64,000 bases of DNA from Fimbriiglobus ruber. Lineage in GTDB: Bacteria; Planctomycetota; Planctomycetia; Gemmatales; Gemmataceae. The stretch is taken from the NCBI RefSeq assembly GCF_002197845.1, contig NZ_NIDE01000001.1:682001-746000 (forward strand), given 5' to 3'. Of the stretch, positions 21,875 to 46,903 are shown piece after piece. The position numbers were made by a program, and so were the translations under genes. Every line of letters begins with the position of its first letter. Position 1 is the first letter of the stretch. The notes under the pieces were generated by a model, which was given only the letters and a program-made list of their open reading frames with translations, was not told where the DNA came from and made no database searches.

Positions 21875-22192
21875 CGGCGGGCGGCTCCGGGCAAGGCGTG
21901 CGGTCTCGGGACGACGGCCGGGTGCGAGACCGGCCGTGGAATTGTATCGCAAAATCACGAGTAAACAGTGAACGGTCACAGTGACGGGCGAGAAAGCCAG
22001 GTCCCAGCGCTGAAGACGTGAAGCCAGTGTCATTATCTCTCACGCTCGGCACAGCCCAAAAACCGCTGAACGCAGGTTGCACCGCTTGATGCTCGGGAGA
22101 TCGACGCAGCGGTTTTCAGCCTGAAAGGCTGGTACTTCTCAGCCCGGGGCAACGCCCCGGGACCCTTCACGTACCCAGAGAACCTTGGGTGT
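21875..22192. other. Gap with two small GC hairpins
   Basis: No gene is seen in this 318-base gap. It contains two short hairpins: CAGCC-TGAAA-GGCTG (22117-22131) and CCCGGGGC-AAC-GCCCCGGG (22143-22161), both just downstream of the coiled-coil gene stop at 22193. They look like part of a dispersed GC-rich intergenic element I associate with planctomycetes, and they may help terminate that gene's transcript. Confidence 0.5.
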
Positions 22193-29090: not shown

Positions 29091-29151
29091 TGATGAAAAC
29101 GCGGAGTGGTGAGCCGATATGAGAGGTGGAGAAATTGTATTGCCGAAAAGA

Positions 29152-29265
29152 TTTTTGCCGCAGATTCACGCAGATGAACGCGGATCAGAAAAGAGATTGG
29201 AAAACAGAATTCCTGTCTGATCTCTTTTCTGATCCGCGTTCATCTGCGTGAATCTGCGGCAAAAA
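29152..29265. repeat. Dispersed long hairpin repeat, copy 1
   Basis: Two perfectly complementary 46-base arms (29152-29197 and 29220-29265) flank a 22-base loop; with mismatches the pairing extends outward to about 29142-29275. The arm core GCAGATGAACGCGGAT is shared with the copy at 34949-35040. It begins 12 bases after the stop of the cyanophycinase-like gene (29277, minus strand) and lies upstream of eutB. On the minus strand the stem ends in a T-run, so it can act as a terminator. The length and the second copy point to a dispersed element. Confidence 0.85.
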
Positions 29266-29276
29266 ATTCTTCGGCG

Positions 29277-34948: not shown

Positions 34949-35040
34949 TTTTTGCCGCAGATCAACGCAGATGAACGCGGATTAGAACACAGATCCGATA
35001 TTTCACATCCGCGTTCATCTGCGTTGATCTGCGGCAAAAA
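34949..35040. repeat. Dispersed long hairpin repeat, copy 2
   Basis: Perfectly complementary 34-base arms (34949-34982 and 35007-35040) flank a 24-base loop. The arm core GCAGATGAACGCGGAT matches copy 1 at 29152-29265, while the loop differs. It sits directly after the stop of moeA (35047, minus strand) and about 40 bases upstream of the lnt start, the same placement as copy 1. On the minus strand it ends in a T-run and could terminate the moeA transcript. Confidence 0.85.
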
Positions 35041-39911: not shown

Positions 39912-41303
39912 ATGGACGCGATCAGCACTTTCGACATCTTCAAGATTGGTGTCGGCCCGTCGAGTTCGCACACACTCGGGCCGTGGCGGGCCGCCCAACG
40001 ATTCCGTTCGGCCCTCGACGCGATTCAGCCCGCCCGCGTGCGAATCGACCTCTACGGCTCGCTGGCCAAAACGGGCCGGGGTCACGGCACAGACCTCGCC
40101 GTTCTGATGGGGCTCATTGGCGAAGACCCGGTCACTTGCGATACGGCGAGCCTTCACGGAAAAGTCGCGACGATTCGAGCCACGGGACGAATTCCTCTCA
40201 CCAGTAATCACTCCGTACCGTTCGATCTCGTTTTCCACACCGACGCGACTCTACCGTTCCACCCCAACGGCTTGACCTTCACGGCAGTGTTGGAAGGGGG
40301 AGGCGAGCACGCCGAGACGTATTACTCGGTAGGCGGCGGATTCGTCGTTCGGGAAGGGGAGACGGAACAGGCGTTGGTAACGAAGCCGCTCCCGTTACCG
40401 TTCTCGTCGGCGGCGGAGTTACTTCGCCACTGTCACGAGCAAAACCTGTCCATTCCCGATCTGGTACGTCGCAACGAACGGACCTGGCGGACTGACGAAG
40501 AAATTCGCGCCGGGCTGGCCCGGCTGTGGGAAACGATGTGTGCCTGCACGTACCGCGGCTGTCACGCCGAAGGGATTTTGCCCGGCGGCTTGAACGTCGT
40601 TCGCCGGGCGGCTGCCATGAACCGCCATCTGCTCGTCGGCAAAACGTACTCCGACGTCGGCTCGTGGCTGGACGCCGTCCGGCAGTCCGGTGGCGGGTTT
40701 CGTGAGACGTTGAAGTGGGTGAGCTGTTTCGCCCTGGCAGTGAACGAAGAGAACGCCGCGTTCGGGCGGGTGGTCACGGCACCCACGAACGGGGCGGCTG
40801 GCGTCATCCCGGCCGTTCTCCTCTACGAGCAGTGCTTTTGTCGACCGGGAACCGGGGTCGAAGACTTCCTGCTGACGGCCGCGGCGGTCGGCATGTTGTT
40901 CAAGCAAGGGGCGACGATCTCGGCCGCGATGGGCGGCTGCCAGGCCGAGATCGGCGTGTCGAGCGCGATGGCTGCGGCGGGCCTGACGCAAAGCCTGGGC
41001 GGTTCTGTGGCGACGGTCCTCATGGCGGCCGAGATCGCCATGGAACACCACCTCGGCATGACCTGCGACCCGGTCGGCGGGCTGGTTCAGGTGCCGTGTA
41101 TCGAGCGCAACACGATGGGGGCGATCAAGGCGATCACCGCCTGCAATCTTGCTCTCGAAAGTGACCCGGACCGGGCCAAGGTGTCGCTCGACGCGGTCAT
41201 TCGTTCGATGTGGCAGACGGCGCTCGACATGAACGCCAAATACAAGGAGACGGCCGAGGGCGGTCTGGCGATTCAAATCTCGGTGAACGTGATCGAGTGT
41301 TAA
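39912..41303 (+). CDS. sdaA: L-serine ammonia-lyase (iron-sulfur, single chain)
   Basis: This 463-residue enzyme deaminates L-serine to pyruvate and ammonia. It has the N-terminal domain start [24 protein letters not shown] and the catalytic part [16 protein letters not shown]. The three [4Fe-4S] cysteines are visible as C343 ([15 protein letters not shown]), C385 and C396 ([18 protein letters not shown]). The tail [14 protein letters not shown] is also typical. Length matches single-chain SdaA/SdaB. Upstream lies about 285 bases of hairpins and promoter sequence. Its stop overlaps the stop of the converging small gene by 4 bases. Confidence 0.95.
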
Positions 41304-41773
41304 CCACCGGCCCGCGGCCGGTTCGATTGCAAGCGTCGGGCGATGGCCCGCCAACGGTTCTGGCGGTGGCGATAAAGGGTCAGGGCGAACAGCCACACGA
41401 CCGGCGTGAATCCCCCGGCTTCGATCTCGATTTCGTCCGAGTAACGACACCTGCCCGGAGCGATGGATTCGACACGGATGAGGTGGTCCCATCGTCGGAC
41501 GAGGTGGTCACATTCGCGGGTTTGGATCGTGTACGATGCGTGATCGATTCGCTCAAAGAGCAGGGTTCGCGTCCCGAGCGGGATGATCCCGAACAGGTAC
41601 GACCGACACAACACGGTCATTCCATTCGGCCACTTCTCCGGGAATTCCTGGCCCGGCACTGGTCGAATGACTACCAGTGGTTTGACGACCGTCAACAGAA
41701 GCCGGCTCTTTTGGACCTCATTCCACGCGATATCCGCCTCGCACGGCAGGACGGATGTGACGTAGGCGCGCAT
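41300..41773 (-). CDS. Unknown protein, possibly SRPBCC-like
   Basis: The 157-residue product has no signal peptide. The pattern of beta strands ([78 protein letters not shown]) and a C-terminal helix ([24 protein letters not shown]) resembles SRPBCC/START-type ligand-binding proteins, especially YndB/CoxG-like or cyclase-type members. The match is by pattern only. The gene converges on sdaA, with a 4-base overlap of stop codons, and is followed upstream by the nested palindrome. Confidence 0.72.
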
Positions 41774-41801: not shown

Positions 41802-42262
41802 CCGTCCGGGGTACGCTCCGCGAACCCCGGGCTGTGTTGTGTAACGCTTTCAGCGTAAAGAACGCGAAACTGCTACACGCTTTTCTCTTCCTCCGAGTTG
41901 TGTTCGGTCTGGCTCAGATTCTGGTACGCTGAAAGCGTGGCTCATGAGGCGGTAGAGGTGGAAGGGCATAACCATCCTGTCGCTATCGCTCCCCCACCGG
42001 CGCTCGGCGCGGGTCTCCGACCCCGCCGCTCTTCGGACCGCAGGTCTCCAACGCCAGCCTGGCGCAGGCGGCGGTGTCCGAGGGGGTGAGCGTTGGGAGA
42101 CCTGCGGTCCGAAGAGCGGCGGGGTCGGAGACCCGCGCCGAGCGCCGGTGGGGGGAACGTTGGGACGGAAGACCTGCGGTCGGGCCGAAGCACCTCTGCC
42201 GCCTCATGAGCCGAAAGCGTTACACAACACAGCCCTGGGGTTCGCGGAGCGTCCCGGGACGG
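41802..42262. repeat. Nested large palindrome, about 460 bp, non-coding
   Basis: Three inverted-repeat layers are nested. The outer arms are 41802-41851 and 42213-42262 (about 50 bases, near-perfect, containing GGGCTGTGTTGTGTAACGC). The middle arms are 41939-41960 and 42191-42212 (22 bases, one mismatch). The inner arms are 41991-42049 and 42096-42154 (59 bases, perfect). A further 12-base inverted repeat, 41846-41857 with 41925-41936, brackets a segment present only in the left half, as if inserted there. Short frames inside are by-products of the repeat. It could be a MITE-like element or encode a very long structured RNA. It lies in the gap between the SRPBCC-like and ImpE-like genes. Confidence 0.85.
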
Positions 42263-42271
42263 TTCTTTCCA

Positions 42272-43051
42272 TCACGTCGCCACCCGGAGGTCAAATTGGC
42301 GGCAATCGCCGAATAACACCTCTTCTTCACCGACCATAAAAACACGCGGGCCGATGCCGCACACGACCCCGCCCGGCGCTTCGGGCCAGTCGGCTTCCTG
42401 TCCCGTCGCGAATCCGTCGCCCGCGGCATGCGATCCGGGGTACAGGAGCGGAAGGACGAATTCGCGTGCGGTCCCCTCGACCCACGTCAATCGTGCGACC
42501 CGGAACGCGACATCGAGTACCGCCACGGCCGGGCTGAGCGTGATCCGCCGCAGATCGGCGAACGGAATCCAGGCGTAGTCCGCGCCGGCGAATACCTCCA
42601 ATACCGACCCGAACCGATCGTCCGTGTCTCGAAGTCCGTCGAACTCCCGGCCGTCGATGTGGCCGAATAGGTGTGGGGAGGAGGCGTCAGCCGAATCGAC
42701 CCACCGGGCGGCGTCGGGGTCGCCGGTCGCGACGGCGCGGGCGGCGCGCCACCGGCGGGCGGCGTGGGCGGGCGGGGGTGAAAGAAACGTGGGGCGTCGG
42801 TGGCGGTGGGAACGCCTGTATTCTGCCTTGAGCAGTCGGGCGAACGCCTTTCGGGTCGCCGGCCATGCGGGGTCGGCAGATTCGATGGCGCGAAGGTGAT
42901 CGCGCGCGTCCGCGAGCCGCCCGGCCAGCGTCAGCAGCTCGAACAGAAAGAGCCGTACGGCGGGGTCGTCGGGTCGTTGACGGACGACCTCGTCTTGCAG
43001 GGCCACGGCGTCCGCGAGCCGCCCGTCCGCGAGTGCGTCCTGAGGAGTCAT
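42272..43051 (-). CDS. impE: ImpE/TagJ-family protein (type VI secretion accessory)
   Basis: The start at ATG 43051 (MTPQDALADGRLADAVALQDEVV) gives 259 residues, the ImpE size. The N-terminal half is TPR-like (RQRPDDPAVRLFLFELLTLAGRLADARDHL). The C-terminal half has the family hallmark GREFDGLRDTDDRFGSVLEVFAGADYAWIPFADLRRI, then LTWVEGTAREFVLPLLYPGS. In proteobacteria ImpE/TagJ accompanies type VI secretion and binds the sheath ATPase system. No other T6SS gene occurs in this window, so its role here is open. It is closely preceded (about 75 bases) by the bamA gene on the same strand. Confidence 0.85.
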   Translation of the reverse strand: MTPQDALADGRLADAVALQDEVVRQRPDDPAVRLFLFELLTLAGRLADARDHLRAIESADPAWPATRKAFARLLKAEYRRSHRHRRPTFLSPPPAHAARRWRAARAVATGDPDAARWVDSADASSPHLFGHIDGREFDGLRDTDDRFGSVLEVFAGADYAWIPFADLRRITLSPAVAVLDVAFRVARLTWVEGTAREFVLPLLYPGSHAAGDGFATGQEADWPEAPGGVVCGIGPRVFMVGEEEVLFGDCRQFDLRVAT

Positions 43052-43125
43052 GCGGTCAATATAGTGGCCGGCCGGGGCGACAGGTGGAAGACGCCGGTCG
43101 CCCGGCGAGTCCACCGCCGGTTCTC

Positions 43126-45525
43126 TTACTGGCCGCCGAACCAGCCGACGTAGAAGCTGAAGAGTTGCTTCTGGTCCTGCGCGGCCTGGTGGACCGGGAC
43201 CGCGAAGTCGAGGGCGATCGGGAGCGGACCCATCGCCGGAATCACGATCCGCATCCCGGCTCCGACGGCCACCCGGTAATCCGTGATCGTGACCGTTCGC
43301 TCGACCGTACCGTGGTCGCAGAACATGACGAACCACAGTTTGTCGTTCGCCATGACCGGGATCTGGTATTCGACGGTGTTTAGGAACGCGAACGTGCCCC
43401 CAATGTTCAAATCGTTTTCGTACGGCCCGACCCCGCGGAACGTGAACCCCCGCATACTCCGGAAGCCCCCGGCGAACGCCCGCTCGAACACCGGCGCGTT
43501 CGCGCCCATGACGGTCGCCTGGGTTCGCAGGGCGAGTACCTGTTTGCCGCTGCCGTCTTTCCGCTGATACATCGTGTAGTACTGGCTCAGTTCGGTCGTC
43601 CCGATCGGCACCTCGTAGTAGCTCCCGAACAGCTGCTCGAACCCGATGTCGAACACGCTCCCGCTGGTCGGGAGCAGGTAACTATCCCGGGTGTCGCGGT
43701 TCAGCCCGGCCCGCAAGCCGAGTTGGGTCGCGTGGCCGGCGTCCGACGTGATCGCGTTCGACGCCCAGTACGGGATGTTTTTGACGTCCACGTCTTCGAG
43801 TCGGGCGGACATGGTGGTTTTCCAGATCGGGCTCTCGGCGAACCGGTAATCGACCGTGGCACGGAGCCCCGTTCGTTCTTCGGTGTACTCGGTGTACTGG
43901 CGCTCGAAGAAGGATCCGCTGATTGTCAGCCCGAACCGGGTGTCGTACAGGTACGGCTCCCGCCACGTGATCGCGTACCTTTGGAACGTGGTTCCCGGCA
44001 TGGCCTGGATCTGCATTTCCTGGCCGCCACCCCGGAACGCCTTACCCGCGAACAAGTCGTCCAGGCTGGTCGGGACCCGCAGGATGTCGAAGTTCCGCTG
44101 GTTGAGGGTGATCGACCCGTTCACCCCGGCGTCCGAGTTCACGGTCGCGGTCAGGGCGGCCATCCCGGTCCGGGTTTCCTTGACCCGCACGCGGATGTCC
44201 TTGTAGATGCTGTCGAAGTCGGACGGGATCACCTCGACGGTCGGGGGGTCTTCGCCGTCGAAGATGCCGAGCCGCGACAAATTCGCCTCGGCCTGCTTGA
44301 GTTTCGGGTATTGGAGAACCTGCCCCGGGTAGAGGCCGAGCTGGTTCATGATCACCCGCTGGGCGGTGATCGTGTTCCCCTCGATGATGATCCGCCCGAC
44401 GCGGTCGGGTTCCCCGCGACTCGGCTCCATCAGCCGGTAATGGACGTCCACGACGCCGGGCTTGTCCGGCACCGCGAACCACGCGTGTTCGACGATCGCG
44501 TTGACCCCCCCGTTCCCTTCCAGGTTCTTGAGCCGCTGCTCGTCGGCCTGGACGGCGTCGAGGTTGTACTTCTCGCCGGGCTTGGTTTCGATCACCTTCC
44601 GCAGGCGGGCGTCGGAAACCAGTTTGTTCCCCTCGATCTTCACGCTCCCGACGGTGTACGCCCGGCCCTCGTCGACGTGGTACACGACCGTCACCTGGCT
44701 GACGTCGTTCGGGTACGGGACGACCTCCTCGTGAACCTGCGCGTCGAGGTGGCCGAGGCGGTAGTAGTATTTGACCAGCCGCTTCTTATCTTCTTCAACC
44801 ATCGCCTGGTTGAACTTCGCCGTCAGCGGGGTGATGAACCCGGAAATCATTGGGCCGGTGGAGACGACCACAGTCTTGAGGCGCCCGCTATCGGCCGCCG
44901 CGTTGCCGCGGAAATCGACGCCGCGGAGGCGGACCACCGGCCCCTCGGTGATCTGAAAGACCACCCGGGTGTCGGCGAGTTTGTCGCCTTCGAGCAGTAT
45001 CACGGTGGCGTACGCCCGCCCTTCTTCCCGCAGCTTGTTCTGGATTTCCTGGGCCGCGAGCTGGTTCATCGTCGGGTTCAGCGGGCTGCCCTTGCGGAGG
45101 TGCGTGAGGTCCCGGAGTTCGCTCTCGGACAAGTGCTCCTGGCCGATGTAAACGACTTCGTTGACGATGTTGTTGAGTTCGAGAACGTGAACGAATACCG
45201 TCACCCGGTTGTCCGCCCCGATAATCGTGCTGACGCGCACCCCGCCGGGCGCGAACCACCGCGTCCCCATGAGCTGGCGGACGTCCGCGTCGACCGTGTT
45301 CGGGTCGTACACGGCCCCCGCCTTGGTTTTCATCTGGCTCAGGATGGTTTGCTTGTCGTGGATCTTGTTGTTGACCGGAATAACATCGGCCACGATTTTT
45401 CCGAACGGGGTCTCTTCGGCCGCGCGGGCCCCGGGCGCGGCGCACCAGACACCGCCGACGGCCGCGACAACGGCCAATACGACGAAAGCCTGGATGCGGC
45501 CGAGGAACGGGCGGCGGGCAATCAT
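43126..45525 (-). CDS. bamA: BamA/Omp85-family outer membrane assembly factor
   Basis: The start at ATG 45525 (MIARRPFLGR) gives 799 residues with a signal peptide ending near AARA. Several POTRA repeats follow; two clear ones are YTVGSVKIEGNKLVSDARLRKVIETKPGEKYNLDAV and VGRIIIEGNTITAQRVIMNQLGLYPGQVL. The C-terminal 350 residues form the beta-barrel, with FAGGFRSMRGFTFRGVGPYENDLNIGGTFAFLNTVEYQIPV carrying the RGF motif of Omp85 loop 6. The last residue pattern is FSFYVGWFGGQ, without the usual terminal aromatic. The protein inserts outer-membrane beta-barrels. A homologue here supports a diderm planctomycete envelope. Confidence 0.92.
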   Translation of the reverse strand: MIARRPFLGRIQAFVVLAVVAAVGGVWCAAPGARAAEETPFGKIVADVIPVNNKIHDKQTILSQMKTKAGAVYDPNTVDADVRQLMGTRWFAPGGVRVSTIIGADNRVTVFVHVLELNNIVNEVVYIGQEHLSESELRDLTHLRKGSPLNPTMNQLAAQEIQNKLREEGRAYATVILLEGDKLADTRVVFQITEGPVVRLRGVDFRGNAAADSGRLKTVVVSTGPMISGFITPLTAKFNQAMVEEDKKRLVKYYYRLGHLDAQVHEEVVPYPNDVSQVTVVYHVDEGRAYTVGSVKIEGNKLVSDARLRKVIETKPGEKYNLDAVQADEQRLKNLEGNGGVNAIVEHAWFAVPDKPGVVDVHYRLMEPSRGEPDRVGRIIIEGNTITAQRVIMNQLGLYPGQVLQYPKLKQAEANLSRLGIFDGEDPPTVEVIPSDFDSIYKDIRVRVKETRTGMAALTATVNSDAGVNGSITLNQRNFDILRVPTSLDDLFAGKAFRGGGQEMQIQAMPGTTFQRYAITWREPYLYDTRFGLTISGSFFERQYTEYTEERTGLRATVDYRFAESPIWKTTMSARLEDVDVKNIPYWASNAITSDAGHATQLGLRAGLNRDTRDSYLLPTSGSVFDIGFEQLFGSYYEVPIGTTELSQYYTMYQRKDGSGKQVLALRTQATVMGANAPVFERAFAGGFRSMRGFTFRGVGPYENDLNIGGTFAFLNTVEYQIPVMANDKLWFVMFCDHGTVERTVTITDYRVAVGAGMRIVIPAMGPLPIALDFAVPVHQAAQDQKQLFSFYVGWFGGQ

Positions 45526-45642
45526 TCGTCTTTCCCCCAAACTAAAACCAATCCGGAGCGCGGTCCCTGCGCGCCGGGGTGGCCGGATACCCGTGGGCGA
45601 AATTAGTGTCAAGTCCGACGAACCTGGAAACCGAAAGCGGCC

Positions 45643-45652: not shown

Positions 45653-46903
45653 CAGGGCCTTTCCTTTATTCACTTTGTGGGATCCCAATCAGCGCCCGGG
45701 CTTCATCGTGGTGGATTTGCAGCCACTCGATGGCCTCCGGACGGTTCTCGGTGTCGACATCGGCCAACAGATGGACGACGGCGTTCCGGATGGCGGCCAG
45801 GACCTGCGGAGCCGCACCCATCCGCACCCGGCAGCGGTCCTCGCCCAGGGTCTCATCCCGGACCCAATGCAATCCGTTCTCGATCTGCCAGTGATCCCGG
45901 AGGATGGACAGAAGTGTCGCCGCATTCGCCTGTTGGATCGACAGACTGGTGATTCCGTACACATCCTCGATCGTCTTCTTCCCTTTGACCGTCCGCTCGC
46001 GGGTGACGTGGAACCCTTGCTTGGCCCCCTTCCACTTCCCCTCGGCGGTCAGAATCGTCGTCGTGTGGAGGGTTCGCTTCTCGATCCGCCCATGTCCCTT
46101 GTCGACCGACGTGGCCACCCGGTCGGGATCGGGTGCCGTTGGCAGGTCCTCAGGGGGAAGTGGCCGCCGCGATCGATCGGGCGGCGGTCGCGAAGGCGAA
46201 TCCGGCTCGGATATCGGCGACCAAGGCCGGTTGGTTGTCCTTGGCCACGAGGACGTAGTCGCCCCCGGAATCGATCACCTGGGTGGCCAGATCGCGCTGA
46301 CAGAACATGGCGTCCCCGGTGACCACTTTGCCCCGCACGGGGAGGATACCGAGGAGTTCGAGGGCGGCCTTGTGTTCGTTCGTTTTGGCATCGACCCGGA
46401 CCTGAGCGAGGACGGCCTGGACGGCGGGTGCGTAGGCGGCCACCAAGTGGTGGCCGGGCACGTCCCCGTGGCGGCTGCCTCGCAACGTCTTGCCGTCGAT
46501 CGCGATGTGCTCGAACGCGTGGGGGTCGAACCGGCCGGTCACCCACCGGGACAGGGCCGCTTCGAGGTCCTGGGGGTCGAAGCGGCGGAGGGTTCGGGAG
46601 AGGGTCGAGACGGTCGGCGTTTTGCCCCGCCGGAAGCCCAGGGCGTGAGCCAGCGGAGCCCCGTGCTGCCGTCCGAACCGGGAGATCCCGGCCAAGCTCT
46701 TGCGGCCACTCAGCATGGCCAGAGCGACCAGTCCATGACCGCCGGGAGGGGATGAATGCGACCGTGGCGGCTGCGGGGATCGGGGAGGGTGGCGAGGGCC
46801 TCGTACAGCGTACACGCGGGCATGGGCAGCTCCTGGGAATCGGAAGGTGCCCCGTTTACCCAGCCCAGGTCGATTCAACAAGATGAAACAAGGAAAGGCC
46901 CTG
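45653..46903 (-). mobile_element. ISAs1-family insertion sequence (1251 bp)
   Basis: Inverted ends start CAGGGCCTTTCCTT on both sides (45653 inward and 46903 inward). The 10-base sequence TTCGCCGCTC directly borders both ends (45643-45652 and 46904-46913); an 8-10 base duplication is usual for this family. The element contains one transposase gene on the minus strand that is broken by two frameshifts. It sits between bamA and the epimerase gene, outside coding sequence. Confidence 0.93.
45666..46823 (-). pseudogene. ISAs1-family transposase, two frameshifts
   Basis: The frame opens at ATG 46823 (MPACTLYEALATLPDPRSRHGRIHPLPAVM). It breaks near 46733, where one G appears to be missing on the coding strand; it resumes as LVALAMLSGRKSLAGISRFGRQHG and IAIDGKTLRGS. 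It breaks again at 46153-46157, where the C-run is five instead of four. The last part (VDKGHGRIEKRTLHTTT to DHWQIENGLHWVRDETLGEDRCRVRMG) is the conserved ISAs1 end. Because one base is lost and one gained, the total is exactly 386 codons, the normal family length. Both lesions are single-base changes in short runs, so sequencing error should be considered along with decay. Confidence 0.88.

What the first reader, a model, noticed from the sequence alone, without database searches (positions are those of the whole stretch)
41802..42262. Nested, about 460-bp palindrome with a one-sided insertion
Outer (about 50 bp), middle (22 bp) and inner (59 bp, perfect) inverted repeats are stacked in order, so one strand could fold into a very long hairpin. 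The left half carries an extra segment (about 41852-41936) bounded by its own 12-bp inverted repeat, as if a small element had entered one arm. No reading frame explains it. It may be a MITE-like mobile unit, a structured RNA gene or a recombination hot spot. The arms are clearly visible; function is inference.
Basis: partly seen in the sequence, partly recalled or inferred. Interest (0 to 1): 0.75.

Follow-up and report, generated by a model that had tools for sequence, protein, structure and literature searches.

The report
Mobile element nested in repeat hairpin
The 460-base palindrome is two mobile repeats stacked: a 274-base miniature transposon, present in dozens of copies in this genome, jumped into one arm of a smaller hairpin repeat that belongs to a second repeat family, one whose units flank a transposase gene in a related bacterium.

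Summary
The inner element, 41939-42212 (274 bp), is a MITE with 22-bp terminal inverted repeats (GGCTCATGAGGCGGnAGAGGTG) and a perfect 8-bp target duplication (GAAAGCGT). The genome has 106 matches to these ends. Of 27 end pairs chosen without looking at flanks, 18 have a duplication of at least 7 of 8 bases, against 3 of 702 mispaired controls. Ends and duplication match an autonomous 1,052-bp IS1595-family IS in a relative. No matching transposase was found in this assembly.

Without the MITE the rest is a 179-bp inverted doublet of two-hairpin units. Seven more doublets were read in this genome. In a relative such units flank an IS200-like Y1 transposase on both sides, so this layer is REP/REPIN-like. 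A two-hairpin unit lies near 11 of 16 Y1 genes examined. Tests gave no good support for an RNA gene or hairpin targeting. Interest is moderate and lies mostly in the Y1/REP link.

The parts
41802..41857 (+). left REP-like unit: hairpin H1, linker, hairpin H2
   Evidence: recurs in this genome and six relatives; window-type units flank a Y1 transposase in L225
41858..41924 (.).
   Evidence: lies between the two H2 arms 41844-41857/41925-41938; empty site folds as one hairpin
41925..41938 (-). first part (H2) of the right REP-like unit, cut off by the MITE
   Evidence: 14-nt perfect complement of 41844-41857
41931..41938 (.). left copy of the 8-bp target duplication GAAAGCGT
41939..42212 (.). 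274-bp MITE, IS1595-type ends, no transposase gene
   Evidence: dispersed copies; duplications against mispaired control
41939..41960 (+). left terminal inverted repeat of the MITE
42191..42212 (-). right terminal inverted repeat of the MITE
41991..42049 (-). left arm of the core palindrome carried in the MITE
   Evidence: 59 nt, 100% complementary to 42096-42154; 19-mer of the core has 230 matches in this genome
42096..42154 (+). right arm of the core palindrome
42213..42220 (.). right copy of the 8-bp target duplication GAAAGCGT
42221..42262 (-). remainder of the right REP-like unit (linker and H1)
   Evidence: pairs with the left unit

Best explanation
Two independent mobile repeats are nested. 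(1) The outer layer is a 179-bp REP doublet (REPIN/BIME-like): two inverted copies of a ~55-nt unit made of hairpin H1, a short linker and hairpin H2, around a 67-nt spacer. Units of this type flank a Y1 (IS200-like) transposase gene in a relative. By analogy with RAYT/REP systems the doublet was probably spread in trans by such a single-strand nuclease (inferred). (2) Later a 274-bp non-autonomous MITE entered the right arm and duplicated 8 bp, GAAAGCGT (read directly from the sequence). A DDE transposase of the IS1595 family acting in trans on the 22-bp ends most likely moved it (inferred from matching ends, matching duplication length and an autonomous IS in a relative). The MITE carries a palindromic core unit that also occurs in other genera where no MITE ends were found. 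The very long hairpin is a by-product of nesting symmetrical elements; no function of the composite is needed.
For: End sequence: 61 + 45 matches, reversed control 0. Target duplications: 18 of 27 pairs chosen by ends alone at >=7 of 8, control 3 of 702; AT-rich (31% GC against 55% in the flanks beyond; from 22 copies picked for having duplications). Autonomous partner: G026 IS of 1,052 bp, 18 copies fetched, each >=99.7% identical to one reference copy, 10 of 18 with duplications at >=7 of 8, DDE_Tnp_IS1595 above cut-off. 91-bp elements with the same ends in Gemmata sp. IIL30, 4 of 10 with perfect duplications. Outer layer: seven further doublets; window-type units on both sides of the Y1 gene in L225, sister units on both sides of the Y1 gene of L219 in this genome.
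Against: No transposase with matching ends was found in this assembly. The Y1 gene flanked by window-type units is in another genus; the three Y1 genes of this genome have sister units (L219), other repeats (L220) or none (L218). No GTAG or CGTC tag is conserved beside the units (4 of 23 rows each). Movement was not observed. In G010 the related 1,054-bp element has no duplication, and in G044 the flank is cut by the contig end.
Confidence: 0.92

Rival explanations
1. A structured RNA gene: the long hairpin is transcribed and kept by selection.
For: Extreme folding energy. Among 19 of 40 collected copies, 1309 of 1453 cells pair, slightly above all 200 shuffles (mean 1292, maximum 1306); 11 of 81 pairs have two or more Watson-Crick types. 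Half-changed pairs are G-T 47 against C-A 28.
Against: Only 16 double-change cells of 1453, and 69 cells with other mismatches; related copies can exceed shuffles without selection. Rfam's only match is a microRNA family at 39.8 bits (gathering 70) on + and 39.5 on -. Interiors vary widely between copies with the same ends.
Confidence: 0.03
2. The hairpin was the target: the transposase prefers REP or hairpin sites.
For: Known for some other IS (PMC1525189, abstract). In 2 of 29 copies a 10-base complementary stretch spans the site, a length reached in 3 of 1450 base shuffles.
Against: Of 29 copies only the window copy lies in one of the REP units tested; one other (L040) has a core unit nearby; the remaining 27 have stretches of up to 8 bases. 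The shuffles keep base composition only, so real intergenic DNA may give more.
Confidence: 0.08
3. The whole 460 bp moves as one composite element.
For: It is one continuous palindrome.
Against: The MITE recurs without the outer arms and the outer doublet without the MITE. In one search, where 40 of 196 candidates were scored, no other listed match holds both. The 8-bp duplication brackets the inner 274 bp only.
Confidence: 0.02
4. The outer doublet serves as 3' end or terminator of the ImpE-like gene, whatever its origin.
For: It begins 9 bp after the stop of the ORF 42272-43336 (-), which has an ImpE domain.
Against: Not tested; position alone is weak, and REP units are often extragenic.
Confidence: 0.2
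5. An assembly artefact joining inverted copies.
For: Long inverted repeats are hard to assemble.
Against: Other copies show the same design with different flanks and clean duplications, as do other genomes. Reads were not available here.
Confidence: 0.01

Closest known systems
IS1595-family insertion sequences and non-autonomous (MITE) derivatives
   Same: Ends starting GG, 8-bp AT-rich duplications, DDE_Tnp_IS1595 transposase in the autonomous relative (family traits from passages of PMC8101967 and PMC12561309).
   Different: The interior is not a deleted transposase gene but a palindromic core unit found elsewhere; no partner found in the same genome; in the G026 relative the transposase is split over two reading frames.
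REPINs / BIMEs with RAYT (TnpA-REP) transposases
   Same: Palindromic units in inverted doublets, scattered in the genome and flanking a Y1 transposase gene.
   Different: Unit of two hairpins (about 55 nt), no conserved GTAG/CGTC tag, and Y1 partners with Y---Q--HH (14 of 16) rather than the Y--NP type of class 2.
Class 3 TnpA-Y1 of Planctomycetes (PMC6006769, passages)
   Different: Reported signature NHVH, W[TA], YV[VI][AENY]EQ and foot CnGA; here mostly DH[VI]H, WQ and Y---Q--HH with AGCC between the hairpins.
IS elements that insert into REP sequences (PMC1525189, abstract)
   Same: A mobile element sits inside a REP-like repeat.
   Different: No clear preference for such sites here.

Membership tests
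MITE | short non-coding element with terminal inverted repeats, many dispersed copies | tested here: met
   22-bp ends; 106 end matches, control 0; 29 copies with paired ends and duplications, 28 of them 92-428 bp
MITE | target-site duplication of constant length | tested here: met
   18 of 27 at 8 bp (22 of 27 if 9 bp is allowed) against 3 of 702
MITE | ends shared with an autonomous element | tested here: met
   in a relative (G026) with two differences in the 20 specified bases; not found in the same genome
IS1595-derived | 8-bp duplication and IS1595 transposase between matching ends | tested here: met
   G026 copies; zinc-ribbon domain just below its cut-off (24.6 against 25.4 bits)
IS1595-derived | mobilised by an IS1595 transposase | not testable with these tools
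   needs a transposition assay
REP/REPIN | palindromic units as inverted doublets, dispersed | tested here: met
   window plus seven doublets, and single units; 33 matches to the H2 18-mer, control 5
REP/REPIN | units flank a Y1 transposase gene | tested here: met
   L225 in G033 with window-type units; L219 in this genome with sister units; 11 of 16 loci by a model written after seeing examples
REP/REPIN | GTAG or CGTC tag at the foot of the hairpin | tested here: not met
   4 of 23 rows for each tag within 18 nt, a few rows being doubtful units
Class 2 RAYT protein | Y motif of the YI-x-NP type | tested here: not met
   1 of 16 (L235); 14 of 16 have Y---Q--HH. NCBIfam calls three of four IS200/IS605 above cut-off and REP_Tyr_transpos stays far below cut-off
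Subclass 1.2 Y1 protein | signature Y---Q--HH and place in the protein tree | tested here: inconclusive
   signature met by 14 of 16; no tree was built
structured RNA | conserved pairing with compensatory changes | tested here: inconclusive
   small excess over shuffles, 16 double-change cells of 1453 in 19 copies

The most novel reading that the evidence does not exclude
In Gemmataceae, Y1 transposases of the IS200 side (signature Y---Q--HH, subclass 1.2-like) are the partners of a distinct kind of REP: a two-hairpin unit with AGCC between the hairpins, arranged as inverted pairs around the gene and scattered as doublets. This would be a REP/transposase partnership parallel to the classical GTAG RAYT systems, in a subclass described as generally lacking typical IS200 end structures; the palindrome in this window is one of its doublets, later hit by a MITE.
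Probability: 0.5. Interest if true: 0.5.

Novelty: new variant of a known kind. Interest (0 to 1): 0.38.

Why it matters
It turns a puzzling palindrome into a readable two-step insertion history and defines two repeat families in a large planctomycete genome. The link between two-hairpin repeats and Y---Q--HH transposases would give a testable case of a REP-like system arising on the IS200 side of the Y1 family. The nesting itself is ordinary genome history.

Tried and rejected
ISL3 was my first guess for the mobiliser (recalled traits). PF01610 has four matches in the genome; I did not check their ends, because the G026 IS with these ends proved to be IS1595.

L055 (1,990 bp between MITE ends) looked autonomous; it is a MITE that holds a nested IS with DUF772 and DDE_Tnp_1_6 domains. 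L056 (2,483 bp) has no matching duplication.

The IS1595 transposase of the own genome (L204) and the fragment L205 show no pair of matching ends nearby. A protein search with the G026 transposase gave at best E 0.006 at 26% identity, at the L204 place.

RNA selection, hairpin targeting and movement of the whole 460 bp were examined and found unsupported or weak. None of the Y1 loci fetched carries the core palindrome of the MITE.

Full report
Observation. The repeat around the extra segment is 14 nt and perfect rather than 12.

Inner element. A search of the window's own genome (12,363,577 bases, 20 contigs, 40 of 196 candidates scored) found many dispersed copies of about 41938-42215; no other listed match there held both the outer arms and the inner part. 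The end sequence GGCTCATGAGGCGGnAGAGGTG has 61 forward and 45 reverse matches with up to 3 mismatches, reversed control 0 (not all 106 places were printed). I fetched loci around the listed places. Among pairs chosen by their ends alone (27 with up to 3 mismatches at each end and under 450 bp), 18 of 27 have a duplication of at least 7 of 8 bases at the exact offset, 22 of 27 if 9-bp duplications count; mispaired controls give 3 of 702. A second set, selected for having a duplication, holds 29 copies, 20 of them perfect, 28 of them 92-428 bp long and one of 1,990 bp with a nested IS. In 22 of these with 8-bp duplications the consensus is roughly RAnAnTTY with 31% G+C, against 55% in flanks beyond. 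The window copy has GAAAGCGT on both sides.

What moves it. The ends with up to 2 mismatches occur in 19 of 95 genomes of the family, the own one included. Several of these have only one or two hits and the reversed control also hits some genomes, so single hits mean little. G026 is clear, with 24 forward and 24 reverse hits. I fetched 18 copies: 1,052 bp, each at least 99.7% identical to one reference copy, 10 of 18 with a duplication of at least 7 of 8 (my notebook says 11, which was a miscount). The transposase was read in one copy (L175): the two reading frames match Zn_ribbon_IS1595 (E 2.4e-5, just below its cut-off) and DDE_Tnp_IS1595 (E 1.5e-22) and NCBIfam IS1595 above cut-off. Related elements in G010 (no duplication) and G044 (flank cut) add nothing. 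PMC8101967 (passages) says IS1595 members usually have 8-bp duplications; PMC12561309 (passages) reports AT-rich 8-bp repeats for one member and 7-9 bp for its group. Gemmata sp. IIL30 has 91-bp elements with the same ends; 4 of 10 examined have perfect duplications, the other six match at 0-2 of 8. In the own genome no transposase with matching ends was found: the partner is lost, outside the assembly or too diverged.

Core palindrome. The 59-bp arms belong to a repeat of which a 19-mer (up to 1 mismatch) has 119 + 111 matches in this genome and 1 to 7 in seven others, 8 of 95 genomes in all; the reversed control has single hits in three genomes. Three of those genera (G028, G030, G041) have no MITE ends at all. 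The MITE probably picked up an older palindromic unit and amplified it (inference). In 19 of the 40 collected copies the pairing is mostly unchanged: 16 double-change cells of 1453; half-changed G-T 47, C-A 28, other mismatches 69. The 1309 paired cells lie slightly above 200 shuffles (mean 1292, maximum 1306). I read this as shared ancestry or occasional arm-to-arm copying rather than RNA selection, but it is not a clean negative.

Outer layer. The flanks joined without the MITE and with one copy of the duplication give a 179-bp hairpin, -126 kcal/mol. Its arms recur: an 18-mer around H2 has 33 matches with up to 3 mismatches, control 5. Complete doublets were read at L147, L148, L149, L150, L151, L206 and L207; L152, L153, L209 and L210 showed one unit. 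Related arms occur in six other genomes of the family, where many pairs have the opposite order. By eye, the flanks of L150 and L151 are themselves complementary, as if they had entered small palindromes; PMC3733652 (passages) reports such sites for some REP families.

Link to a transposase. PF01797 (Y1_Tnp) has three matches in the own genome. The L219 gene has inverted sister units on both sides; L220 has abundant inverted repeats; L218 has no such unit. All six relatives searched have PF01797 matches. The L225 gene of G033 lies between inverted pairs of window-type units. I examined 16 Y1 loci: the three own ones and the 13 best of 36 matches. Fourteen of 16 carry Y---Q--HH. Fourteen of 16 have an inverted repeat reaching across the gene, two of them short (18 and 25 nt), with some flanks cut by contig ends. 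A model of my own (small hairpin, 6-14 nt, AGCC, larger hairpin) finds 26 units near 11 of 16 genes in 27.8 kb; 2 in the 64-kb window (this locus and 22141); 2 in 179.6 kb of 80 other loci; 0 in 138.9 kb of base-shuffled sequence. The model was written after seeing examples, some in the tested set, so these numbers are descriptive. PMC6006769 (passages) gives Y---Q--HH as the signature of subclass 1.2, generally without typical IS200 end structures and mostly in Cyanobacteria and Bacteroidetes, and describes a class 3 in Planctomycetes with atypical flanking structures but a different signature. I built no tree.

Targeting. Of 29 copies only the window copy lies in one of the REP units tested; the longest complementary stretch across the site was 10 bases in 2 of 29, a length seen in 3 of 1450 shuffles, and at most 8 in the rest. 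So this nesting looks like chance, but a mild preference for palindromes is not excluded.

Context. The doublet starts 9 bp after the stop of a minus-strand gene with an ImpE domain (42272-43336) and lies upstream of a minus-strand ORF without domain hits (41300-41773); a serine dehydratase gene (39912-41303 +) and an Omp85 gene (43126-45612 -) lie further out.

Literature. The genome paper of the likely host was not among the 20 of 47 listed. Seen otherwise: passages of PMC3733652, PMC6006769, PMC8101967 and PMC12561309, and the abstract of PMC1525189.

Verdict. A new MITE family of IS1595 type nested in a REP-like doublet. The nesting is ordinary; the more interesting part is the two-hairpin repeat tied to Y---Q--HH transposases.

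Noticed in passing
window 22117-22162: A second two-hairpin unit of the type that flanks the Y1 gene of L220 lies between two minus-strand genes.
   Followed up: partly
L055:501-2490 (G000 C5:430874-432863): MITE carrying a nested IS with DUF772/DDE_Tnp_1_6 domains; a small palindrome (L055:1328-1440) lies between the two parts of its transposase: three nested layers.
   Followed up: partly
L175:1504-2485 (G026): The IS1595 transposase is read in two different, overlapping frames, while 18 fetched copies of the IS are nearly identical; a programmed frameshift is possible.
   Followed up: no
L198:6365-6455 (Gemmata sp. IIL30): The 91-bp MITE sits beside a stretch that by eye resembles the C-terminal part of an IS1595 transposase.
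   Followed up: no
L150 and L151: Flanks of two outer-type doublets are complementary to each other, as if the doublets had entered small palindromes.
   Followed up: no
L061, L078, L099, L100: The core unit of the MITE is repeated four to nine times in direct and inverted order.
   Followed up: no
window 29142-29275 and 34949-35040: Two further palindromes share similar arms (TTTTTGCCGCAGAT...GAACGCGGAT).
   Followed up: no
window 45666-46118: ORF with a partial DDE_Tnp_1 transposase domain on the minus strand.
   Followed up: no
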